From a virus, in the IMG/VR virus record IMGVR_UViG_3300033146_001792, positions 1 through 52,144 of that record: a stretch of DNA of 52,144 nt, one strand, 5' to 3'. Below, piece by piece: positions 2,591-14,274 of this stretch. Position 1 is the first letter of the stretch; every line of letters starts with the position of its first letter. Below the pieces are notes generated by a model. That model was not told where the DNA came from and did not search any database. It worked only from the letters and a program-made list of their open reading frames with translations. A program made the position numbers and the translations under genes.

Positions 2591-4642
2591 TTATTTTTTC
2601 TCAATTATTTTTGAATTTGTAAGTCTAATAACATCTGTTCCTGAATATAAATCTGGATTATCAGTTATTAACGTACATTTATTTTTAAGGGATAAATATT
2701 TTGTAGTATCATATTCGTTATCATTTTTAATTTCTATTGATGAATTATTTTTCAATAAAATACTATATGATTTTTCATTATAATTTTCTATATCAAATAA
2801 AACATGTGAATTATTTGATATTTCTAAAGAATTACTATTCCAATGGTTATATGTAATATCCTCATTAAATGATGGTTCTAATTCACAGTCAGTAAATTTT
2901 ATATTTGAATTGTTTTTTATTTCAAAACATTTTATTGGATGGTCTTTTGGAATATCTGTTAATGATGAATCTTGATTTTTTTTATAAACATGAGATATAA
3001 TTCTCATTTTTTTTATATCTTTAATACTATTACCATCCGTTAAACTCAATACTTCTTTAGACAATTTATCAACTTCACTACCATCTATATAATATTGATA
3101 ATAATCGTTATTTGATTGATTAAAAATATTTACATCTGTATTGTTACCTAAACTTAACTGTCCACGACCATTAGAACCAGTACCCCAAAGTGATTTATTA
3201 GTTTTATTAACCATAGAATGATTCCCATTACAATCAATACTAATCCAATCATTATCAGTTCCAGATTTAACAAAAATAATACGTTCTACATTATCACCTA
3301 AACCTAATTGGCCTGAATGATTATTACCAGTACCCCAAAGAGTTCCATCTTGCTTGATTGATATTGAATGTTCAAATCCACATGCAACTTGTTTCCAATC
3401 ATTATCAAGACTTATTTCTTGAGTAAAAATAAATTTATTAATTCTATCATTCGTTCCTAATTGACCAAATCTGTTACTACCAGTTCCCCAAAGAGTGCCG
3501 TCAGATTTTATTGCCATTGAATAATAATCACCACAAGCAACTTGAACCCAATTAGTATCAAGTCCTATTTCTTGAGTAAAAATAGTTTTAGATACATATA
3601 AATTCAATCCTAACTGTCCATAACCACCATGTCCGGTGCTCCAAATAGTCCCATTTGTTTTTAATGCTATTGAATGCCAATCACCACAAGATATACTATC
3701 CCAATCATTATCAGTTCCTACTTGAGTAAAAATATTCCGATCTGTATTATCACCTAAACCTAATTGTCCATAATAATTATATCCAGTAGCCCAAAGAGTA
3801 CCATCTTGTTTAATTGCTATTGTAAAATCACTACCACCATCAACTTGTTTCCAATCATTATCAGTTCCTACTTGAGTAAAAACATTTCGATTTACATTAT
3901 CACCTAAACCTAATTGTCCATAATAATTATATCCAGTAGTCCAAAGAGTACCATCTTGTTTAATTGCTATTGAATGATTACCACCACCAGTCACACTGAC
4001 CCAATCATTATCAGTTCCAGATTGAATAAAATTATTAACAGATTCAGAATCTACTCCTAATTGACCGAGACCATTAACACCAGTTCCCCATAAAGTACCA
4101 TCCTGTTTGATTGCCATGGTATGATAATATCCACAACTTACATAAACACTATAAAATTTATCATATATTAATTGTTTATAATAATCTAAATAATATTTTT
4201 TAGAAATATAATATCCTTGCCCATCAATCATAATTCTATGTCCATATGGATGATTTAAAGATACTGGATCATGCAAAATAATTTCATTGTTATGCATGAT
4301 AATAGTCACAATAGCATCTTCAGAAATTACTTTACAATTTTCTCGTAACCATTCAAAACATTTGTTTAAATTCTCAAATTCTCTACCAAAACCAACATCA
4401 AAAGTAGTATCAACTGTAATAATATCACACTGACCACCAGCTTCCCCATTAACCCATTTTTGCTTAGATTCATCATAAACCAAAATCTCTCCATCTTGAA
4501 CATTATTTATTTCTACATCATATAAATCCGTAAGATCAGTAGCGACAATTTTATCATTTTTTCGTATCTCAGTATCCATGAAGTCAAAAGATGTACTATG
4601 ATGCCCTTCTGTGTTGTTAGGGTTGTACTCCATTTTTGTCAT
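2591..4642 (-). CDS. RCC1-propeller tailspike/adhesin A (one propeller)
   Basis: 683 residues. The N-terminal module (YNPNNTEG, then NDKIVATDLTDLYD and a QKWVNGE turn, about 1-70) is shared with the two upstream paralogues. Residues 80-165 look like the start of a pectate-lyase-type beta-helix (CFEWLRENCKV, PVSLNHPYGHRI). Residues 166-510 hold seven RCC1 blades of about 50 residues, each with a [CG]G..H[ST].[AS][IL]K..GTLW.TG.N..GQLGLG pattern, enough for one closed propeller. Residues 511-683 return to Asn/Ser-rich strands (EIKNNSNI). The start at 4642 overlaps the upstream stop as ATGA. The likely role is receptor binding; the family assignment is firm, the role inferred from context. Confidence 0.82.
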   Translation of the reverse strand: MTKMEYNPNNTEGHHSTSFDFMDTEIRKNDKIVATDLTDLYDVEINNVQDGEILVYDESKQKWVNGEAGGQCDIITVDTTFDVGFGREFENLNKCFEWLRENCKVISEDAIVTIIMHNNEIILHDPVSLNHPYGHRIMIDGQGYYISKKYYLDYYKQLIYDKFYSVYVSCGYYHTMAIKQDGTLWGTGVNGLGQLGVDSESVNNFIQSGTDNDWVSVTGGGNHSIAIKQDGTLWTTGYNYYGQLGLGDNVNRNVFTQVGTDNDWKQVDGGSDFTIAIKQDGTLWATGYNYYGQLGLGDNTDRNIFTQVGTDNDWDSISCGDWHSIALKTNGTIWSTGHGGYGQLGLNLYVSKTIFTQEIGLDTNWVQVACGDYYSMAIKSDGTLWGTGSNRFGQLGTNDRINKFIFTQEISLDNDWKQVACGFEHSISIKQDGTLWGTGNNHSGQLGLGDNVERIIFVKSGTDNDWISIDCNGNHSMVNKTNKSLWGTGSNGRGQLSLGNNTDVNIFNQSNNDYYQYYIDGSEVDKLSKEVLSLTDGNSIKDIKKMRIISHVYKKNQDSSLTDIPKDHPIKCFEIKNNSNIKFTDCELEPSFNEDITYNHWNSNSLEISNNSHVLFDIENYNEKSYSILLKNNSSIEIKNDNEYDTTKYLSLKNKCTLITDNPDLYSGTDVIRLTNSKIIEKK
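3113..4147 (-). repeat. Seven tandem RCC1 blade repeats (propeller of spike A)
   Basis: Seven in-frame repeats of about 150 bases coding for residues 166-510. The core GQLGLG and GTLW codons are nearly the same from copy to copy, while the loop between NIFTQ and the next CG varies. Confidence 0.85.
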
Positions 4643-7600
4643 GGTTGTAATACTCCATTTATGATATATGTTGATTCATAATTATTAACTGTTGGATATA
4701 CTGACGGTTCTTGCGAAATAATTAAAGTAGAATTGTTTTTTATTTGCCATTCCATTTGTTCTGTAATAGATAAATCAACATTCATAAAAGAATTGTCTAT
4801 TGATACTTGATTCAATTCATTGCATTTAGAATTTATTATTGATTTATTTTCACAATTTATTGAATAATTATTCAGATATGTTATTGAGTATAGTTTTCCT
4901 TCAACGAGTTCTTTAGTCATAATTTTTGTATCTTGATCAAAAAATACATTTGACATTGACAAAGATGAATTGTTTTTTATATCTGTATGTTTAATATCAA
5001 CTGAATAATAAAATACATTAAAATTGTTAGAAGAAATACCATTAATAGTAATACCACCATCAGAATATGTAGTGTCATATATAAAATCTAATTCATACTC
5101 TCCTAATCCCAATGCTCCATATTTATTATTACCAAATACCCATAAAGTTCCTTTTGAACCATATGATTTTATCACATAAGAAACCCAATATCCACAAATA
5201 AATATATCAAAATCGTATGAAATGTTATGATTAGTGTATATATTTACCTTAGTTGGTAATTGCCCCCATCCCATTTCTCCTTGATCATTACTTCCAGTAC
5301 CCCAAACAGTACCATCTGTTTTTATTGCTATTGTATGAATTGCTCCACAAGAAATTTCTTTCCAATCATTATCAAGACCTATTTCTTGAGTAAAAATATT
5401 CCTATATGTAGTAGGCCCCTCATCACCCAATCCTAATTGTCCCCAATAATTATTGCCAGTACTCCAAAGAGTTCCATTTGATTTTATTGCAACTGAAGTT
5501 TGACTTTTACAATCGAACTGAACCCAATCAGTATCTATTCCTATTTTAGTAAAAATATTTCTATCAGTATTATCACCTAATCCTAACTGCCCTTGATCAT
5601 TATTACCAGTACCCCAAAGAGTGCCGTCAGATTTTATTGCCATTGAATAATAATCACCACAAGCAACTTGAACCCAATCAGTATCAGTTCCTATTTGTAT
5701 AAATGTATTATAATAATTATCAGTTTGACCTAAACCTAATTGACCCTCATAATTACGACCAGCACCCCAAAGAGTGCCGTCAGATTTTATTGCCATTGAA
5801 TGACTTTCACCACAAATAATATATTTCCAATCATTATCATTTCCTACTTTAGTAAAAATATTTCGATCATTATAATCACCCAATCCTAACTGACCAGATA
5901 TATTTCTACCAGTAGCCCAAAGAGTTCCATCTAATTTGATTGTCATTGTATGACCCGCTCCACAGCCAATCACTTTCCAATCGTTATCGGTTCCTATTTC
6001 TTGAGTAAATACATATCGTCTTGTTTCATCACCCAATCCTAAACATCCATAATAATTATTACCAGTCCCCCAAAGAGTACCGTCTGATTTTAATATCATA
6101 GAGAATGATTGGTGTCCAGTTACATGAACAATATTTCCTTTATCTTCGATAATAACAAAAGAATCATTTTGGTATATTAAATAATTATCAAAAATAACAT
6201 TTTTTATTTCTTTTAAAGAATGATTATCAGTTAATAATAATTTTGAATAATATGTTGATTTGACGGATACAATAAAAATATTTCGATCTGTATTATCACC
6301 CAATCCTAATTGACCATAATAATTATAACCAGTACTTAAAATTGTTCCATCTGATTTAATTGTCATTGAATGATTTTTTCCACTAACAATCAAAATATAA
6401 TCAGTATTAATTCCAACTTGTGTAAAAAAATTTCGATTTGTATTATCACCTAAACCTAATTGCCCACCTTGATTGTCACCTACAACCCAAAGAGTTCCAT
6501 CTGATTTAATTGTCATTGAGTTATCGCCACCACAAATAACATGAATCCAATCATAATCAGTTCCAACTTGAGTAAATGTATTTCTATTAGTATTATTACC
6601 TAAACCTAATTGACCATAATAATTATAACCAGTAGCCCAAAGAGTTCCATTTGATTTTATCGCTAATGTATGTCTTGTACCACAAAAAACTTTATTCCAA
6701 TTAATATCAATTCCAACTTGAGTAAATACAGTTCGATCTGTTTCATCACCCAAACCTAATTGACCTCTAAGGTTTCGACCAGTACCCCAAAGAGTTCCAT
6801 TTGATTTTATTGCCATCGAAAAAAACTCACCACTACAATTAACATAAGCCCAATCAGTTTCAAGTCCTATTTCTTGTGTAAAAAAATTTCGATTCGTGGT
6901 ATCACCTAAACTTAAACTACCCGAACGATTATCACCCGTACCCCAAAGAGTTCCATTTGATTTTATTGCCATCGAATGGTTACTACCACAATCAACTTGA
7001 ATCCAATCACCATCAGTACCAACTTGAGTAAATATAGTTCGATCTGTATTATCACTTAATCCCAATTGACCTCTAAGGTTACTACCAGTTCCCCAAAGAG
7101 TTCCGTTAGATTTTATTGCCATTGAATAATAATCACCACAAGAAACATAAGTCCAATTATTATCAGTTCCAATTTTAGTAAATGTGTTTATATCTGTAAT
7201 ATCATCTAAACCTATTTGACCAACACTATTATCACCTACACCCCAAATGGTGCCATCTGATTTTAATGCTATTGAATGATTACCACCACAAGAAATATAA
7301 ATAAAATCAGACATATATGACTTGTTTATTATTCTATTACCGTTACCATTAATAGAAATATTATGTCCCTGAAGATGATTTAAACTTATATAATCAGTTA
7401 AAGTAACATCTGATAATAATTCAATAGTAAGTGTAATTTCATCTGGTATTACCTTACAATTATTTAAAAATTCAAGACAATCTTCCAAATATAAAAAAGG
7501 ATCTCTATATGTTCCATCACCATTTGATGTATCGTTTTGTTTTACAAATACAGAGTGTTCAGTATAACCACGATTTCTTTCATCATATCCTATAAAAATA

Positions 7601-7827
7601 TTACAAGATGAACCAGCCCCCTCTCCGGGCTTCCAAATACCATCAACATCGTCATATACAAGAGCATCCCCTTGATTTGGAGTTTCATTTTCTGGATATG
7701 TATCGTACAAATCAACTAAATCAGTGGCAACAATTTTATCACCTTTTTTAATCTCAGTATCAATAAAATCTATAGACGTTGGATATGCCCCTTCTGTATT
7801 ATTTGCGTTATATTTAAATGATGGCAT
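4639..7827 (-). CDS. RCC1-propeller tailspike/adhesin B (two propellers)
   Basis: 1062 residues. The N-terminal module (NNTEGAYPTSIDFIDTEIKK, then a WKPGE turn) matches the paralogues. A beta-helix entry with GDGTYRDPF, LEFLNNCKVIPDE and ISLNHLQGHNI spans about 100-170. Seven RCC1 blades follow at 176-520, then a 45-residue Asn-rich beta segment (DNHSLKEIKNVIFDNYL), then seven more blades at 566-910. The C-terminal 150 residues are strand-rich (IKNNSSLSMSNV, MEWQIKNNSTLII). Start at 7827 overlaps the upstream gene by 14 bases; spike A follows with a 4-base overlap. Probably a receptor-binding spike with two propeller heads. Some blades lack the Cys (SGKNHS, TGHQSFS). Confidence 0.82.
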   Translation of the reverse strand: MPSFKYNANNTEGAYPTSIDFIDTEIKKGDKIVATDLVDLYDTYPENETPNQGDALVYDDVDGIWKPGEGAGSSCNIFIGYDERNRGYTEHSVFVKQNDTSNGDGTYRDPFLYLEDCLEFLNNCKVIPDEITLTIELLSDVTLTDYISLNHLQGHNISINGNGNRIINKSYMSDFIYISCGGNHSIALKSDGTIWGVGDNSVGQIGLDDITDINTFTKIGTDNNWTYVSCGDYYSMAIKSNGTLWGTGSNLRGQLGLSDNTDRTIFTQVGTDGDWIQVDCGSNHSMAIKSNGTLWGTGDNRSGSLSLGDTTNRNFFTQEIGLETDWAYVNCSGEFFSMAIKSNGTLWGTGRNLRGQLGLGDETDRTVFTQVGIDINWNKVFCGTRHTLAIKSNGTLWATGYNYYGQLGLGNNTNRNTFTQVGTDYDWIHVICGGDNSMTIKSDGTLWVVGDNQGGQLGLGDNTNRNFFTQVGINTDYILIVSGKNHSMTIKSDGTILSTGYNYYGQLGLGDNTDRNIFIVSVKSTYYSKLLLTDNHSLKEIKNVIFDNYLIYQNDSFVIIEDKGNIVHVTGHQSFSMILKSDGTLWGTGNNYYGCLGLGDETRRYVFTQEIGTDNDWKVIGCGAGHTMTIKLDGTLWATGRNISGQLGLGDYNDRNIFTKVGNDNDWKYIICGESHSMAIKSDGTLWGAGRNYEGQLGLGQTDNYYNTFIQIGTDTDWVQVACGDYYSMAIKSDGTLWGTGNNDQGQLGLGDNTDRNIFTKIGIDTDWVQFDCKSQTSVAIKSNGTLWSTGNNYWGQLGLGDEGPTTYRNIFTQEIGLDNDWKEISCGAIHTIAIKTDGTVWGTGSNDQGEMGWGQLPTKVNIYTNHNISYDFDIFICGYWVSYVIKSYGSKGTLWVFGNNKYGALGLGEYELDFIYDTTYSDGGITINGISSNNFNVFYYSVDIKHTDIKNNSSLSMSNVFFDQDTKIMTKELVEGKLYSITYLNNYSINCENKSIINSKCNELNQVSIDNSFMNVDLSITEQMEWQIKNNSTLIISQEPSVYPTVNNYESTYIINGVLQP
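5098..6132 (-). repeat. Second set of seven RCC1 blade repeats in spike B
   Basis: Codes for residues 566-910. The last blade is irregular (CGYWVSYVIKSYGSKGTLW, with a three-residue insertion), as might be expected for a closing blade. Confidence 0.8.
6268..7302 (-). repeat. First set of seven RCC1 blade repeats in spike B
   Basis: Codes for residues 176-520. Blade starts fall at about residues 180, 230, 280, 331, 382, 432 and 482, a regular 50-51 residue spacing. Confidence 0.85.
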
Positions 7828-10800
7828 CGTTCACAATTATTGTTGAATTTTCATTTTCAATATCGATTATATGATTTGATTTTGTATCGATAATTACATT
7901 TGAATTGTTTTTAGCTGACCATTTTTCTATATCGTACTCTAAATTTGGTATTTCAACTGTACTATTCATATCAATTTTTACATTATTTGGAATTAAATTT
8001 TCAAATATTCCTACAGCAGAATATAATTTAATTGATTTATTATTCAAATATATTACTGAATATAATTGTTTTTTAATATTTCTTTTAATCATTTTTTCTT
8101 GAGAATGATCGAATTGATTATTTAATAGTAACATAGTTGAATTATTTTTAATTTCTAAATTAAAAATATCAATTAAATAATAAGATGTATTATTTTCGTC
8201 TAATATTACTCCATCAATATATATTGCTTCATAATATTTATCAATATAAGGATTAGGAAAAACAGTATCTTGATATCTTTTTCCTCCATGAATATACATT
8301 TTTCCTTTATAAACAGACATGACATGTTTTTTTCTTACTGCTTGCGTCCAGCTACTAACATTTTTTGGCCCTGCATATTTCCATTCGTCTTCATCATCTA
8401 AATTATAATAAGAACCAGAATATACCCAAAATTCTCCACTTGCTCCACCAAAAACATGTAATTTATTACCAATAACACATGATGTATGCTGAGTTAGATT
8501 GCCAGAACGATAATTTTGTAATTTTGTCCATTCTCTAGTTTTTATATTAAATTTATGAAAATCACTTTTTGCACCCATTTCGTCTACACCGTAATTACCT
8601 CCAAGAATATATAAATTATTATTGTACATTCCTGATGAAGCTCCTTTTCTGCCTTGATAATTTTCTGGTGGGCCATATATCGTTTCATTAGTATTTGTTG
8701 ATAATTTATAAATACTTAAACTATTGATTGCTACATTTTCATAACCACCATAAATATATAATTTTCCATCATTATATTCCATAGTAGCATCTCGTCTAAA
8801 TGTTGTATTTCCAATACGACTTAATGTGTCTGTATCTATATTATACACGTATATATTATTAGTTCCTTGTATGTATATTTTATTTCCATTTATACACGAA
8901 GATGGTTTAATTGTATCATGAGAACTGTGTGTATATTCATCCCATGTTTTTGTTATAAAATCAAAAGAATAAAAACGTATATAAGTAGAATATCCTTTCA
9001 TAATATACATTTTATCACCATATACTTGAGAAGTACAATATTCTAATGGATCAGGTGATGGCGTATTTAGAAAATCTAAATAAAAATTCATTCTATACGT
9101 CAAACTGTCATATCGAAGATCATTTTTCAATTTGCAATTAGTTATTCCTTTTAAAGAATGATTATCAAAAAGTTTTAAATTTGAATAATCTGTTGATTGA
9201 GTAGCTTTATTAAAAATATTTCGGTTTGTTTTATCACCTAAACCTAATTGTCCTGAATTATTATTACCTGTATCCCAAATATTACAATTTAATTTTAATG
9301 CTAATGAAAAACTAACACCACAAGCAACTTGAATCCAATCATTATCAACTCCAACTTGAGTAAAAACATTTCGATGTGTATTATCTCCTAAACCAAGTTG
9401 ACCAAGATTATTATAACCAGTACACCAAAGATTACCATCTGATTTTATTGCCATTGTATGCATATAACCACCAGCAACTTGTTTCCAATCAGTGTCAAGT
9501 CCTATTTCTTGAGTAAAAACATTTCGATCTACATTATCACCTAAACCAAGTTGACCATAATGATTTTGACCTGTACTCCAAAGTGTTCCATCTGATTTTA
9601 ATGATATTGAATGGTTTCCACCACAATCAACTTGATCCCATTTATCACTTATACTTTCTTCTTGAGTAAATATAATTTTATAAAAATAACCACCACCTAT
9701 ACCTAATTCACCATAATGATTAGTACCAGTGCCCCAAAGAGTTCCGTTAGATTTGATTGCTAATGTATGATAATCACCACAAGCAACTTGAACCCAATTA
9801 GTATCAAGTCCTATTTCTTGAGTAAAAACATTTCGATCTGAATCCTGTCCATAATCATCTAAACCTAATTGACCCCAATGATTATCGCCAGTACCCCATA
9901 GAGTTCCATTTTCTTTTATTGATATTGTATAATATTCACCACAAGCAACTTGAATCCAATCATTATTAGTTCCAACTTTATTAAAAATATTTCGATTTAC
10001 ATTATCACCTAAACCTAATTGTCCTTGAAGATTACGTCCAGTACCCCAAAGAGTTCCGTCTGATTTAATTGCCATTGTATGATGAAGACCACAAGCAACT
10101 TGATCCCAATCAGTATCATTTCCAACTTGAGTAAAAATAACTACATTATCAATATTACCTAAACCAAGTTGACCAAAATTATTATTACCAGTAGCCCAAA
10201 GAGTTCCGTCTGATTTAATTGCCATTGAATGTTCGTTACCACATGAAAAATGAATAAATTCAGAAATATCGGCTTCATTTATCAAAGAATAACCATTACC
10301 AATAATCTCGATATTATTTCCATAAGGATGATTTAATGAAACCGGAGTATCAATATTTTGATCTGATAATAAATAAACTGAAAGTGTTATATCTTCTGGA
10401 ATGACGACGCATGTGTTTCTTAGCCATTGGAACGCATCTTGAATTGATTGAAATGGTGTTTCATATTGTCCTTCTCCGGGTGTTGTTGTATTTTGATCTA
10501 TAAAAATTGAATTATAAAGATTTATAAAAGGTTGTGTAAACAAAGTCACATTCGGATATACATCACCCAAACCTAATTTACCATCAACATTACTTCCAGT
10601 ACCCCATAAAGTTTTGTCTGTTTTAATCGCAATAGTATGATAATATTGACCCGAAACTTGAACCCAATCAGTATCAGTTCCAACTTTAGTAAAAACTATT
10701 CGATCTGTATTATACCCATCATCACCTAATCCTAATTGTCCATTATAATTATTACCAGTACCCCAAAGAGTTCCATTTGATTTTATTGCCATTGAATGTT

Positions 10801-11854
10801 GAACACTACAAAAAATATAAACCCAATCAGTATCAGTTCCTATTTGAGTAAAAATGTTTCGTTTCATTTCATCACCCAAACCTAACTGACCATCCCTATT
10901 CCGACCAGTACCCCAAAGAGTACCGTCTGATTTTATTACTATTGAAAAATGAGCACCACAAGCAATTTGTTTCCAATTATTAAATCCTATTTCTTGCGTA
11001 AAATTATATTTATTTGTCCAATTTCCATCAGTACCCAATCCCAATTGACCATAATAATTACCACCAGTACTCCAAATAGTACCGTCTGATTTTAATGCTA
11101 TTGTATGATTACTACCACCATCAACCATAATCCAATCAGTACTAAGGCTTGATTCTTGAGTAAAAATATTTCGATCTGTACCTATTCCACCATCACCCAA
11201 TCCTAATTGACCATCATAATTTTTACCTGTACTCCAGATAGTACCATCCGATTTCAATATTAATGTAAAATGACCTCCACAAGTAACTTGAATACAATCA
11301 TTATTAGTCCCTACTTGAGTAAAAACATTTTGGTGTGTAATATTACCTAAACCCAATTGACCTTCATGATTATAACCAGTACTCCAAATAGTACCATCAG
11401 ATTTAATTGCTACTGAATGAAAACGTCCACAAGTAACTTGAATCCAATCGTTATCAGTTCCTACTTGAGTAAAAACATGACATTCTCCTATATCATCACC
11501 CAATCCCAATTGACCCCAATAATTATTACCAGCAGCCCAAAGAGTACCGTCTGATTTTATTGCCATTGAATGATCTTCACCACAATCAACTTGAACACTT
11601 TTAAAACACATATAACTTTCATACCCCTCAAAAACATTACACTCTCCACCACCAGTAACTTCACCATTGATCCATTTATCTCCAACATATGTTAAAGCCT
11701 GTTTGTCTTGAGGATTGTTTATATCAGTATCATAAAGGTCAACAATATCAGTAGCAACAATTTTGTTACCTTTTTTAAGTTCAGCATCTTCAACTACCAT
11801 TGCGGTAGGATATGCGCCTTCTGTATTATTTGAATCATATTTGAATGTAGTCAT
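7814..11854 (-). CDS. RCC1 + Kelch propeller tailspike/adhesin C
   Basis: 1346 residues from ATG 11854, chosen because MTTFKYDSNNTEGAYPT aligns with the starts of spikes A and B; the frame stays open upstream to 11899, so a longer start is possible. Order: N-terminal module (1-75); RCC1 propeller 1 (86-441, seven blades); beta-helix segment with ETPFQSIQDAFQWLRN and PVSLNHPYGNNI (452-530); RCC1 propeller 2 (533-883, seven blades); short strand segment (DNHSLKGITNCKLKN); about six Kelch repeats (937-1215; motifs GDKMYI, GKLYIYGG, NNLYILGG, NKLHVFGG, GKMYIHGG); strand-rich C-terminus (EIKNNSTMLLL). It has no evident SD and a late octamer only nine bases upstream. A multi-headed adhesin is the likely role. 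Confidence 0.8.
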   Translation of the reverse strand: MTTFKYDSNNTEGAYPTAMVVEDAELKKGNKIVATDIVDLYDTDINNPQDKQALTYVGDKWINGEVTGGGECNVFEGYESYMCFKSVQVDCGEDHSMAIKSDGTLWAAGNNYWGQLGLGDDIGECHVFTQVGTDNDWIQVTCGRFHSVAIKSDGTIWSTGYNHEGQLGLGNITHQNVFTQVGTNNDCIQVTCGGHFTLILKSDGTIWSTGKNYDGQLGLGDGGIGTDRNIFTQESSLSTDWIMVDGGSNHTIALKSDGTIWSTGGNYYGQLGLGTDGNWTNKYNFTQEIGFNNWKQIACGAHFSIVIKSDGTLWGTGRNRDGQLGLGDEMKRNIFTQIGTDTDWVYIFCSVQHSMAIKSNGTLWGTGNNYNGQLGLGDDGYNTDRIVFTKVGTDTDWVQVSGQYYHTIAIKTDKTLWGTGSNVDGKLGLGDVYPNVTLFTQPFINLYNSIFIDQNTTTPGEGQYETPFQSIQDAFQWLRNTCVVIPEDITLSVYLLSDQNIDTPVSLNHPYGNNIEIIGNGYSLINEADISEFIHFSCGNEHSMAIKSDGTLWATGNNNFGQLGLGNIDNVVIFTQVGNDTDWDQVACGLHHTMAIKSDGTLWGTGRNLQGQLGLGDNVNRNIFNKVGTNNDWIQVACGEYYTISIKENGTLWGTGDNHWGQLGLDDYGQDSDRNVFTQEIGLDTNWVQVACGDYHTLAIKSNGTLWGTGTNHYGELGIGGGYFYKIIFTQEESISDKWDQVDCGGNHSISLKSDGTLWSTGQNHYGQLGLGDNVDRNVFTQEIGLDTDWKQVAGGYMHTMAIKSDGNLWCTGYNNLGQLGLGDNTHRNVFTQVGVDNDWIQVACGVSFSLALKLNCNIWDTGNNNSGQLGLGDKTNRNIFNKATQSTDYSNLKLFDNHSLKGITNCKLKNDLRYDSLTYRMNFYLDFLNTPSPDPLEYCTSQVYGDKMYIMKGYSTYIRFYSFDFITKTWDEYTHSSHDTIKPSSCINGNKIYIQGTNNIYVYNIDTDTLSRIGNTTFRRDATMEYNDGKLYIYGGYENVAINSLSIYKLSTNTNETIYGPPENYQGRKGASSGMYNNNLYILGGNYGVDEMGAKSDFHKFNIKTREWTKLQNYRSGNLTQHTSCVIGNKLHVFGGASGEFWVYSGSYYNLDDEDEWKYAGPKNVSSWTQAVRKKHVMSVYKGKMYIHGGKRYQDTVFPNPYIDKYYEAIYIDGVILDENNTSYYLIDIFNLEIKNNSTMLLLNNQFDHSQEKMIKRNIKKQLYSVIYLNNKSIKLYSAVGIFENLIPNNVKIDMNSTVEIPNLEYDIEKWSAKNNSNVIIDTKSNHIIDIENENSTIIVNDAII
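8210..9046 (-). repeat. Kelch repeat region of spike C (about six blades)
   Basis: Codes for residues 937-1215. Each unit has a hydrophobic strand ending in [YF].GG or a variant, followed by a segment with an aromatic/Trp such as KTWDEY or REWTKL. Six units would make one Kelch propeller. The first two are weaker (IMKGY, IQGTN). Confidence 0.65.
9206..10258 (-). repeat. Second set of seven RCC1 blade repeats in spike C
   Basis: Codes for residues 533-883. Seven blades; the last is divergent (LALKLNCNIWDTG). Confidence 0.83.
10532..11599 (-). repeat. First set of seven RCC1 blade repeats in spike C
   Basis: Codes for residues 86-441. Seven blades; several carry longer inter-blade loops (for example GDGGIGTDRN and GTDGNWTNKYN) than in spikes A and B. 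Confidence 0.83.
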
Positions 11855-11884: not shown

Positions 11885-11911
11885 AAAAAAACACCCCAAA
11901 GGAGTGTTTTT
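11885..11911 (-). terminator. Rho-independent terminator
   Basis: Read on the minus strand, AAAAACACTCC - TTT - GGGGTGTTTTTTT forms an 11-pair stem (one U-G pair) with a T7 tail. It ends transcription of the EGSSG-repeat gene and isolates the RCC1 operon. Confidence 0.85.
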
Positions 11912-11938: not shown

Positions 11939-12160
11939 TTAAGAACCACCTTCACCAGAAGAACCTTCACCAGAAGAACCTTCACCAGAAGAACCTTCAC
12001 CAGAAGAACCTCCACCAGAAGAACCTTCACTAGAAGAACCTTCTGGTGAACTTGATTCTGGAATACCACCATCACTGGTTCTTATAAATATATATGAACC
12101 GAATGTACTAAATACTACATTTTGATTTACTGTTATTGCTGTTGGATTTGTTTTTATCAT
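11939..12160 (-). CDS. Small protein with EGSSG pentapeptide tail
   Basis: 73 residues. The first 30 (MIKTNPTAITVNQNVVFSTF, then YIFIRTSDGG) look like two or three beta strands; the rest is low-complexity Glu/Gly/Ser made of EGSSG units. An AGGA SD sits 8 bases before ATG 12160. It lies between a fibre gene and the RCC1 operon and is followed by a terminator. The flexible acidic tail could be a linker or a surface-exposed decoration. No family recognised. Confidence 0.55.
   Translation of the reverse strand: MIKTNPTAITVNQNVVFSTFGSYIFIRTSDGGIPESSSPEGSSSEGSSGGGSSGEGSSGEGSSGEGSSGEGGS
11951..12040 (-). repeat. 15-base tandem repeat, six copies
   Basis: Unit TTCACCAGAAGAACC on the plus strand; four copies are identical and two carry single changes (12011-12025, 12026-12040). 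It encodes EGSSG. The period is a multiple of three, so slippage would change tail length without a frameshift. Confidence 0.95.
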
Positions 12161-12177: not shown

Positions 12178-14274
12178 TTAATTTCCACCTTCAAAATTAT
12201 TTACTCTATCAATTAATACTACAGAATTACCCTGTGCTGTAATCATATCTATATTAGTTGGAAATACATTATTAGATGAATTTCGTTGCATCTCTTCAAT
12301 ATTTATATGAGAATATGAACAATCAATTAAAGGAATTGTATCATTTGCAACAAAATTAGTATTATTTTTATAAATCATATTATTTACCTGTGTACCATCA
12401 AAATATATTGCTCTTTGTGTAAATGTTCCTAAATCGGCAAATAACCAATTAATACTACAATGATCGAAATACATTAATTTATATTCATTAGAATAATTTG
12501 ATTGTAATTTAAATTCTAATTCAATAATATTACATGATTTAAAAGATAATAAATCATTTATAGAAGAATTTAAATTAATAATAGTAATATCAAATTGCAA
12601 CAATGTACAATCAATAATTGTTAATAAATTTTCATCATTAATATGTGTTCCATCCAATGTAACATCAAAAATATCCAAATCTATAAAATTAGATAACACA
12701 GTATGCTCGTATGTTTTAAACGTACTATATCTAATAGATAATTTAGATGATCTTTGACTTGTATTTCCTAATGTAAGAACATCACCAGTACAATATGAAA
12801 TTATAATTTCACTATATCCATCTGTACTATCAAAAAATATGTGTTGATTTGGTGAATAAAAATCACAATCAATAATATACAATTTATTAATTACTTTAAA
12901 AAGACTATCACCAGAAGTCATACCACTTGCAGTTATAGTATATTTTCCTTTTCCATTAGCCATAATAACAATATTGTTAGGATGATTTATTGTTAATTTT
13001 TGTGTAACAGTAAAATTAGAATTTACTTCAAGTCTAATATTAATATTTCCTGAACAAACTAATTGATTTGCTCGTTCAATACATTTAGCTAAAGTAGCAT
13101 ATGGATAACTTGTTGTTCCGTCACCAGTTGTATCATTTCCTGTAGATGTTGCGTATATATCAATATCACCTGTAACCATACCACTTCCACCACCAGAAAT
13201 ATCATCTTGTGGTTTCCATAATGAATCAACAGAATTCCATTTAAGAACTTGACCATTATTAGGAGGAATTGTGGTTGTATCAACATCAACAAGTGAATCA
13301 ATACTTCCACCACCACCAGAAACAGTTCCGGGAATCCATGTAGCATTTACACCATCCCATATAAGAGCTTGACCAGCATTAGGAGAATTTGTAGTAGTAT
13401 CAACATCACTTAAATCATCAATTTTAGATGCTCCGCCACCACCACCAGAAACAGTTCCCGGAGTCCATTTAGATGTAGATGAATTCCAAACAAGAGCTTG
13501 ACCGTCTATAGGTGGAACTGTAGATGTATCAGCATCACTCAAATCATTCATAGAGTCAACTGTTGATTGTGTATCAGCAGGAACCCAACTTGTACCATTC
13601 CATGTAAGAATTTGATTTAAAGTAGGTGATGTTGTTGTAGTATCAACATCTGTAAGATCACTTATAACTGAAACTGTTGATTGAGCATCCATAGCTTGCC
13701 ATTCACCAGCAGTATCATTCCATGTAAGAATTTGATTATCTGTTGGAGAAGAAATATTTACATCATTAATATTATTTAATGTATCAGCTTCTCCTTTCCA
13801 TTCTGTACCATCAAATACAAGTTTATCTCCATTCACAGCCGCAGAAGTATCAACGTCTGTATTTCCACTAATATGCGTTGTTCCTTGTGGTAAATTAACC
13901 CAAGACCCTCCACTATATGTAAGAACCTCATTGTCACTAACAGAACCAACTACAACGTCTGTAAGGCTATTTAAATCTGTATTACCAGTTGTAGGTGCTT
14001 TAAATACATCACCAAGAATTGTAATACCACATTTTTGTCCTGCTGTTGGTGCTACAGCAAATGTAATTTGATAATTTGAAATTGAATAATCAACATCAGG
14101 TTCTTGAAGAGCACCATCAATACCAACAACCAAATTGGTAGCCTTTCCAATCATTCGATTTACTGTATTTACTTTGATATCAAATGTTACTAAAGTGCCA
14201 TTAAATAATCCTGAGATATCATCAACTTTATCATAAGCACCTTGTAATTGTGCTTCTCTTCCTATATAAGACAT
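12178..14274 (-). CDS. Tail fibre/spike with repeat shaft and beta-helix tip
   Basis: 698 residues. The N-terminus (MSYIGREAQLQGAYDKVDDI, about 1-100) resembles fibre attachment domains of T4-like phages. Residues 105-370 are seven or eight degenerate shaft repeats of 28-45 residues of the type LSDVDTTT..P..GQ.L.WN....W.P. with Gly-rich hinges. From about 375 a GDGTTSYPYATLAKCIERAN segment starts a predicted right-handed beta-helix that continues to the end, rich in Asn/Ile/Ser. This helix entry matches the scaffold in the RCC1 spikes but here has no propeller. SD GAGGA precedes ATG 14274. Role: host recognition, inferred. Confidence 0.72.
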   Translation of the reverse strand: MSYIGREAQLQGAYDKVDDISGLFNGTLVTFDIKVNTVNRMIGKATNLVVGIDGALQEPDVDYSISNYQITFAVAPTAGQKCGITILGDVFKAPTTGNTDLNSLTDVVVGSVSDNEVLTYSGGSWVNLPQGTTHISGNTDVDTSAAVNGDKLVFDGTEWKGEADTLNNINDVNISSPTDNQILTWNDTAGEWQAMDAQSTVSVISDLTDVDTTTTSPTLNQILTWNGTSWVPADTQSTVDSMNDLSDADTSTVPPIDGQALVWNSSTSKWTPGTVSGGGGGASKIDDLSDVDTTTNSPNAGQALIWDGVNATWIPGTVSGGGGSIDSLVDVDTTTIPPNNGQVLKWNSVDSLWKPQDDISGGGSGMVTGDIDIYATSTGNDTTGDGTTSYPYATLAKCIERANQLVCSGNINIRLEVNSNFTVTQKLTINHPNNIVIMANGKGKYTITASGMTSGDSLFKVINKLYIIDCDFYSPNQHIFFDSTDGYSEIIISYCTGDVLTLGNTSQRSSKLSIRYSTFKTYEHTVLSNFIDLDIFDVTLDGTHINDENLLTIIDCTLLQFDITIINLNSSINDLLSFKSCNIIELEFKLQSNYSNEYKLMYFDHCSINWLFADLGTFTQRAIYFDGTQVNNMIYKNNTNFVANDTIPLIDCSYSHINIEEMQRNSSNNVFPTNIDMITAQGNSVVLIDRVNNFEGGN

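What the first reader, a model, noticed from the sequence alone, without database searches (positions are those of the whole stretch)
2591..11854. Array of 35 RCC1 blades in three tandem phage spike genes, always in multiples of seven
Seen: three consecutive overlapping genes carry 7, 14 (7+7) and 14 (7+7) RCC1-type repeats. Known: RCC1 forms a seven-bladed beta-propeller. The exact multiples, with linker segments only between groups of seven, imply five complete propellers. Such a cassette in a T4-like phage, sharing one N-terminal attachment module, looks like an undescribed multi-head adhesin system.
Basis: partly seen in the sequence, partly recalled or inferred. Interest (0 to 1): 0.88.

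Follow-up and report, generated by a model that had tools for sequence, protein, structure and literature searches.

The report
Swappable propeller heads on phage tail
Three neighbouring genes of a T4-like virus of bacteria encode probable tail proteins that share one stem, and whole ring-shaped "propeller" domains (RCC1 or Kelch type) are plugged into that stem at three fixed places and differ between related viruses, which looks like interchangeable heads for gripping the host.

Summary
Three overlapping minus-strand genes (2591-4642, 4639-7827, 7814-11854) carry 7, 7+7 and 7+7 RCC1 blades.

Multiples of seven are the general rule for viral RCC1 proteins: 82 of 96 by automatic count, 89 after reading doubtful cases by eye. 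This is expected of a seven-bladed ring. It is not absolute: a close relative has a block of eight.

What is new is the architecture. With the propellers cut out, the three proteins share one 317-349 aa scaffold. Orthologues in two other phages keep it (47-57% identity) but fill its three insertion sites differently, including RCC1 in gene A and Kelch in its orthologue. Distant jumbo phages show a parallel: GAP32 has RCC1 and CBB has Kelch at one virion locus, behind the same MLPF-type N-terminus.

Best reading: tail-mounted adhesins with exchangeable propellers. Published papers annotate phage RCC1 virion proteins as DNA condensation; acidity, tail-protein fusions and variable loops inferred to share one face argue against that.

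Scaffold fold, virion location and binding are not shown; both AlphaFold models were low confidence.

The parts
2591..4642 (-). gene A, 683 aa: N-module, cap, RCC1 propeller at site 2, C-terminal segments
4427..4642 (-). A: N-terminal module (NNTEG...ATDL.DLYD...W)
   Evidence: alignment A3
4148..4426 (-). A: scaffold cap (SLNHPYGHRIMIDGQG)
   Evidence: alignment A9
3092..4144 (-). A: RCC1 block, 7 blades (A7 degenerate)
2594..3049 (-). A: C-terminal scaffold segments (repeated KNNS motifs)
4639..7827 (-). gene B, 1062 aa: N-module, cap, RCC1 at site 2, short segment, RCC1 at site 3, C-terminal segments
7588..7827 (-). B: N-terminal module
7303..7554 (-). B: scaffold cap
6244..7302 (-). B: RCC1 block at site 2, 7 blades
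6136..6243 (-). B: scaffold segment between sites 2 and 3 (KLLLTDNHSLKEI)
5041..6135 (-). B: RCC1 block at site 3, 7 blades (last two degenerate)
4642..5055 (-). B: C-terminal scaffold segments
7814..11854 (-). gene C, 1346 aa from ATG at 11854 (a TTG start at 11899 is possible): N-module, RCC1 at site 1, cap, RCC1 at site 2, segment, Kelch at site 3, C-terminal segments
11600..11854 (-). C: N-terminal module
10514..11599 (-). C: RCC1 block at site 1, 7 blades
10256..10513 (-). C: scaffold cap
9182..10255 (-). C: RCC1 block at site 2, 7 blades
9065..9181 (-). C: scaffold segment between sites 2 and 3
8225..9064 (-).
   Evidence: Pfam; solved Kelch domains; fold match
7817..8224 (-). C: C-terminal scaffold segments
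12178..14274 (-). gene D, 698 aa, upstream tail-fibre / connector-like protein with DL.DVDT...GQ.L.W repeats and a cap resembling that of A-C
   Evidence: PHROGs; hhalign

Best explanation
Genes A, B and C encode three paralogous tail proteins of a T4-like phage that act as host-binding adhesins. Each has an N-terminal module that anchors it next to protein D at the baseplate or tail fibre, then a short scaffold (probably a right-handed beta-helix stem), into which closed propellers are inserted at up to three fixed sites. A seven-bladed ring brings its own start and end together, so a whole ring can sit in a loop of the stem without breaking it; this would explain why blades come in sevens and why heads can be gained, lost or swapped (RCC1 for Kelch) while the stem is kept. 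The most variable residues fall in two loops per blade that should lie on one face of the ring, the likely binding face. Shown here: blade counts, Kelch head, common scaffold, different site occupancy in orthologues, tail-gene context, variable columns. Inferred: ring closure, beta-helix fold, location on the virion, binding to the host surface.
For: Homology of the blocks to seven-bladed RCC1 domains (Foldseek best UVR8, TM 0.70 by target over 358 columns, from a low-confidence model). Scaffold alignment with heads removed (w = window, r = L009, s = L013): wA-rA 47%, wB-rB 56%, wC-rC 54%, wC-sC 57%, while site occupancy differs (Kelch of rA, PF24681 E 4e-21). Same gene order and flanks in L009/L089, and the start of the same order in L013. 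N-module and cap resemble parts of D (hhalign prob 74%, E 3e-5, and 73%, E 3e-5; search hits on D of L013). D has tail-fibre PHROGs, and baseplate, tail-lysozyme, tail-tube-cap and sheath genes are in the window. Independent cases: RCC1 fused to a tail protein in L074 (phrog_1101 E 4e-55), and three tandem RCC1 genes sharing a fibre-type N-module with non-RCC1 neighbours in L042. RCC1 in GAP32 and Kelch in CBB at one syntenic virion locus, both with the N-terminus MLPF...YGN shared also by LamG-type neighbours. Loop 1 and loop 3 columns are the five most variable of 50 in both the window and L009. RCC1 blocks are acidic, net -10 to -27.
Against: No virion proteomics or binding data for this phage; host unknown. 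Both AlphaFold models are low confidence (mean pLDDT 53 and 46) and do not resolve the scaffold. The cap matches no beta-helix family in Pfam significantly (one hit at E 0.075) and no solved structure. In L013 the variable-loop pattern is weaker. The site scheme rests on three contigs, since no further carrier of the N-module or cap was found.
Confidence: 0.68

Rival explanations
1. The RCC1 proteins condense or order DNA inside the head, as the family name suggests and as proposed for phAPEC6 and W70.
For: Name and annotation of the PHROG families; authors' suggestion in PMC7247149 and PMC11370258; RCC1 proteins are in virions there.
Against: Blocks are acidic, net -10 to -27; here and in L042 and L074 they are joined to tail-type modules; in the window family and in RaK2-like phages they are exchanged with Kelch heads, which have no DNA-condensing role known to me.
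Confidence: 0.05
2. The propellers are passive: spacers, decoration or docking sites for other virion proteins (whisker-like structures), not host-binding heads.
For: Hair-like fibres of unknown make-up occur on phAPEC6 and CBB, which carry RCC1 or Kelch virion proteins (PMC7247149, PMC5259590); propellers are common protein-docking platforms.
Against: Variability sits in the loops inferred to share one face, and heads are swapped between orthologues, which is expected of host-facing parts rather than of fixed docking sites.
Confidence: 0.15
3. The propellers are enzymes (depolymerases), as n-bladed propellers and beta-helices are two depolymerase folds in phage proteins.
For: DepoScope lists both folds among phage depolymerases (PMC11326577); a beta-helix-like stem would fit.
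Against: No catalytic family passed its cut-off as an enzyme in A-C; RCC1 and KLHDC2-type Kelch domains are mainly binding domains (established knowledge). Catalytic residues were not looked for on a model.
Confidence: 0.07
4. The block count of seven is a product of recent tandem duplication or host-derived insertion, with no closure constraint.
For: Blades are homogenised within each genome (same-propeller 52.0%, different-propeller 52.2%; nearest blade in own genome for 29 of 35); one block in L009 has eight blades.
Against: 82 to 89 of 96 non-redundant viral RCC1 proteins have exact multiples of seven; mean DNA identity of blades is only 68%, so the array is old.
Confidence: 0.05

Closest known systems
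RCC1 virion proteins of Vequintavirinae and RaK2-like phages (W70_237-239; phAPEC6 eleven copies; GAP32_001), PHROGs 4219, 7220, 16766
   Same: RCC1 repeats, tandem genes, found in virions by mass spectrometry
   Different: Of the size of one ring (about 40 kDa; GAP32_001 385 aa), without this N-module or stem where inspected; described as DNA condensation; not described as swappable heads
CBB Kelch proteins (CBB_550, 552, 554; 552 found in the virion)
   Same: Kelch propellers at the locus where GAP32 has RCC1, behind the same N-terminal peptide
   Different: Separate short genes, one head each; no scaffold with several sites
Endosialidase tailspike of phage K1F (from knowledge; PMC12632334 was listed, not read)
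   Same: A beta-propeller domain mounted on a beta-structured phage tail stem
   Different: Propeller is catalytic and of sialidase type; one propeller per chain; no exchange of propeller families at fixed sites
Eukaryotic RCC1-like domains (UVR8, HERC1, RPGR) and BLIP-II
   Same: Same fold family and blade motif
   Different: Cellular or secreted proteins with unrelated partners; blocks here are inserted in a phage tail scaffold
Cyanophage S-SRM01 RCC1 genes (gp335, gp337, gp344)
   Same: Cyanophage (Kyanoviridae) with several RCC1 genes just after baseplate wedge and tail-fibre genes
   Different: Single-block proteins, interspersed with sulfotransferase and other genes, no shared scaffold seen

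Membership tests
RCC1 repeat / RCC1-like domain (PF00415, PF13540, PF25390) | Match above curated cut-off over the repeat and over the whole domain | tested here: met
   266, 482, 584 bits against a cut-off of 150 for PF25390
RCC1 repeat / RCC1-like domain (PF00415, PF13540, PF25390) | Seven repeats of about 50 residues per domain | tested here: met
RCC1 repeat / RCC1-like domain (PF00415, PF13540, PF25390) | Closed seven-bladed propeller in three dimensions | tested here: inconclusive
   UVR8 TM 0.70 over 358 columns, but model mean pLDDT 53
RCC1 as chromatin factor / Ran exchange factor | Ran or nucleosome/DNA binding | not tested
   only indirect: blocks are acidic
Kelch propeller (site 3 of C; L009 gene A') | Kelch family match above cut-off | tested here: met
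   105.7 bits: 75.7 bits, cut-off 50
Kelch propeller (site 3 of C; L009 gene A') | Closed ring with five to seven blades | tested here: inconclusive
   Keap1/LZTR1 Kelch domains TM about 0.6, low-confidence model
Phage tail fibre / receptor-binding protein | Lies in the tail / baseplate gene cluster | tested here: met
Phage tail fibre / receptor-binding protein | N-terminal attachment module shared with tail proteins | tested here: inconclusive
   hhalign to D repeats prob 74%, E 3e-5 over 30 columns; hits on D of L013
Phage tail fibre / receptor-binding protein | Present on the virion and binds host receptor | not testable with these tools
   no virion or host available
Right-handed beta-helix (pectin-lyase-like) stem | Sequence or fold match to a beta-helix family | tested here: inconclusive
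   one Pectate_lyase_5 hit at E 0.075, no solved match; scaffold not resolved by the models
Diversity-generating retroelement target | Reverse transcriptase in the genome | tested here: not met
   none in the window or in the 157-kb relative (records may be incomplete)

The most novel reading that the evidence does not exclude
Phages of several lineages use a common trick: whole closed propellers of different families (RCC1, Kelch, perhaps LamG-type lectin heads as well) are interchangeable cartridges on a conserved tail anchor or stem, and exchange of rings is a route to new host specificity. Most phage proteins now called 'regulator of chromosome condensation' would then be adhesins.
Probability: 0.45. 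Interest if true: 0.68.

Novelty: new variant of a known kind. Interest (0 to 1): 0.55.

Why it matters
Hundreds of viral contigs carry RCC1 genes (437 confirmed stretches in one scan), and PHROGs and published papers file them under DNA metabolism or DNA condensation. If the head-swap reading is right, that annotation is wrong for a large set of receptor-binding candidates, and the rule 'insert whole rings at fixed stem loops' explains both the multiples of seven and how a phage could change specificity without rebuilding its tail. It also gives a direct test between two readings of RCC1 proteins already found in the virions of cultured phages.

Tried and rejected
Extra 14-blade viral proteins as alignment rows for folding spoiled the scaffold columns, so the shallower A4 was used; both models stayed low confidence. 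Hyper-variation by a retroelement: no reverse transcriptase. Beta-helix families for the cap: no significant hit. T4 late promoter TATAAATA upstream of gene C: 21 copies in the window against 15 expected, not informative. Single-repeat hits as proof of ring closure: not accepted. DNA condensation was considered and ranked low.
Full report
OBSERVATION. Genes A (2591-4642), B (4639-7827) and C (7814-11854, ATG; TTG at 11899 possible) are consecutive, overlapping and on the minus strand. A motif scan that was not told to expect seven finds 7, 14 and 14 blades, spaced 49-56 aa, with larger gaps (89 and 136 aa) only between blocks of seven. Pfam RCC1 models match far above cut-off. C also carries a Kelch propeller between its second RCC1 block and its C-terminus (matches to solved Kelch domains). 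So the cassette holds six propellers, not five.

IS SEVEN SPECIAL? A profile search of IMG/VR found 544 candidate stretches, 437 of them RCC1 relatives; the best 80 loci were kept. In 96 complete, non-redundant RCC1 ORFs (window, those loci and two phage records) the automatic count gives an exact multiple of seven in 82: 70 with 7, and others with 14, 21, 28, 35 or 42. Reading the doubtful ones by eye turns seven more into multiples (L044 and L071 14, L015 21, L061, L074 and L088 7, and window gene C, whose fifteenth hit is a stray single match), making 89. Three exceptions look real: an 8+7 protein in L009, 19 in L014 and 6 in S-SRM01 gp335. Four were not re-read (L052, L059, L070, L099). 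The rule is therefore general and is what a seven-bladed ring demands. It is not a peculiarity of this phage.

THE SCAFFOLD. The 'linkers' belong to a framework common to all three proteins. Each has an N-module (NNTEG...ATDL.DLYD), a cap (SLNHPYG..I.I.G.G) and C-terminal segments with repeated NNS-type motifs. With the propellers cut out, A, B and C leave 317-349 aa. Relative L009/L089 (a 156,943-bp contig) has the same gene order D-C-B-A and the same next gene; L013 has D-C and the start of B. Scaffold identities between orthologues: A 47%, B 56%, C 54% (window against L009) and C 57% (window against L013); non-orthologous pairs 27-42%.

SITE OCCUPANCY. Site 1 lies between N-module and cap, site 2 after the cap, site 3 after the next segment. 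A: RCC1 at 2 in the window, but Kelch at 3 in L009 (Pfam). B: RCC1 at 2 and 3 in the window, but RCC1 (eight blades) at 1 and RCC1 at 2 in L009. C: RCC1 at 1 and 2 plus Kelch at 3 in the window; RCC1 at 1 and 2 in L009; RCC1 at 1 and 3 in L013. The stem is conserved and the heads are not. The cut points were set by hand from the sequences. No further carrier of the N-module or cap was found in IMG/VR or in the phage records.

BLADE EVOLUTION. Within the window, blades of the same ring are no more alike (52.0%) than blades of different rings (52.2%), and for 29 of 35 blades the nearest blade is in the same genome: blades are homogenised within a genome. Mean DNA identity is 68%, so this is not a fresh duplication. 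In L009 the 8-blade block of B' has several blades at 76-88% identity, and the extra blade may be recent or an assembly error. No reverse transcriptase was found.

BINDING FACE. Of 50 blade columns the five most variable are the same in the window and in L009: 6 and 7 (after the conserved CG) and 23, 25 and 26 (around the conserved N). They lie in the first and third turns of the blade, judged by the strands in the model; in a four-stranded meander alternate turns lie on the same face (established topology, not seen on a confident model). The second turn (SDG) is nearly invariant. L013 shows this less clearly.

CONTEXT. D, just upstream, matches tail-fibre and baseplate-connector PHROGs; baseplate wedge genes, tail lysozyme, tail-tube cap and sheath are in the window, with T4-type ssDNA-binding protein and helicase loader. 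The second half of the N-module resembles the DL.DVDT repeats of D (hhalign prob 74%, E 3e-5 over 30 columns), and the cap resembles the cap-like region of D (prob 73%, E 3e-5). These are moderate, not strong, matches.

INDEPENDENT CASES. In L074 the RCC1 ring is fused to a tail protein (phrog_1101 E 4e-55). In L042 three tandem RCC1 genes share a roughly 150-aa N-module with neighbours that have no RCC1, and part of it matches tail-fibre phrog_18673. In the RaK2-like jumbo phages GAP32_001 (RCC1) lies next to GAP32_531 and GAP32_002 (the ends of the record being joined), and the syntenic place in CBB, between CBB_549 and CBB_553, holds Kelch genes and a LamG-type gene. The RCC1, Kelch and LamG proteins there begin with similar MLPF...YGN or YAN peptides. 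This is the same pattern, one anchor with different heads, in a distant phage group. The CBB paper notes the Kelch genes and the missing RCC1 gene but draws no such link in the passages read (PMC5259590).

STRUCTURE. AlphaFold of B (13 rows) gave mean pLDDT 53; of C aa 448-1346 (4 rows) 46. Foldseek of the first still finds RCC1 rings (UVR8, RPGR, HERC1, RCC1, BLIP-II) with TM about 0.6-0.7 by target, and of the second RCC1 and Kelch domains. These agree with the sequence assignment but do not prove closure, and they say nothing firm about the stem. The beta-helix is an inference from the cap pattern and the short regular C-terminal segments.

FUNCTION. Most likely the proteins are adhesins: a tail anchor, a stem, and exchangeable rings with a variable face. 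The published alternative, DNA condensation in the head (PMC7247149, PMC11370258), fits the annotation but not the acidity of the rings, the tail fusions or the exchange with Kelch. Passive decoration and enzymatic roles remain possible. Virion presence is shown for other phages' RCC1 and Kelch proteins only (PMC7247149, PMC11370258, PMC5259590).

NOVELTY. Phage RCC1 genes, tandem RCC1 genes, RCC1 in virions and Kelch in virions are known. I found no description of propellers as exchangeable insertions at fixed sites of one tail scaffold, nor of RCC1/Kelch exchange; the library searched holds only openly licensed papers. I file it as a new variant of a known kind (modular phage receptor-binding proteins).

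Noticed in passing
window 11939-12160 (-): A 73-aa ORF between D and C ends in a run of SSGEG repeats (15-bp tandem repeat, 6.4 copies, 96% matches). A terminator-like hairpin at 11885-11910 (-) follows it, just before gene C.
   Followed up: partly
L009 12891-16109: The first RCC1 block has eight blades of exactly 50 aa, several 76-88% identical: a real eight-bladed or mis-closed ring, or an assembly error.
   Followed up: partly
NC_019401 (L102, L103) and KU574722 (L104): In RaK2-like phages RCC1 (GAP32_001) and Kelch (CBB_550, 552, 554) occupy the same virion locus and share the N-terminal peptide MLPF...YGN with LamG-type neighbours.
   Followed up: yes
L046, L047, L048, L049, L060, L077, L078, L083 (one group of related loci): Two pairs of single-ring RCC1 genes flank a gene whose start (LHFLSGIPRSGSTVLAAILNQNP) looks like a sulfotransferase, a recurrent arrangement; cyanophage S-SRM01 also has an annotated sulfotransferase next to an RCC1 gene.
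   Followed up: no
L055, L059, L084, L081, L052: Single viral proteins of 1,797-2,274 aa consist mostly of 34-42 RCC1 blades without long linkers (five or six rings in a row).
   Followed up: no
L067, L069: RCC1 rings joined to segments that look like fibronectin type III domains.
   Followed up: no
L099 7914-12695 (Clostridioides phage ES-S-0173-01): A 1593-aa protein has RCC1 blades in groups 7, 7, 7 and 3 with short linkers, a second multi-ring case in an unrelated phage.
   Followed up: partly
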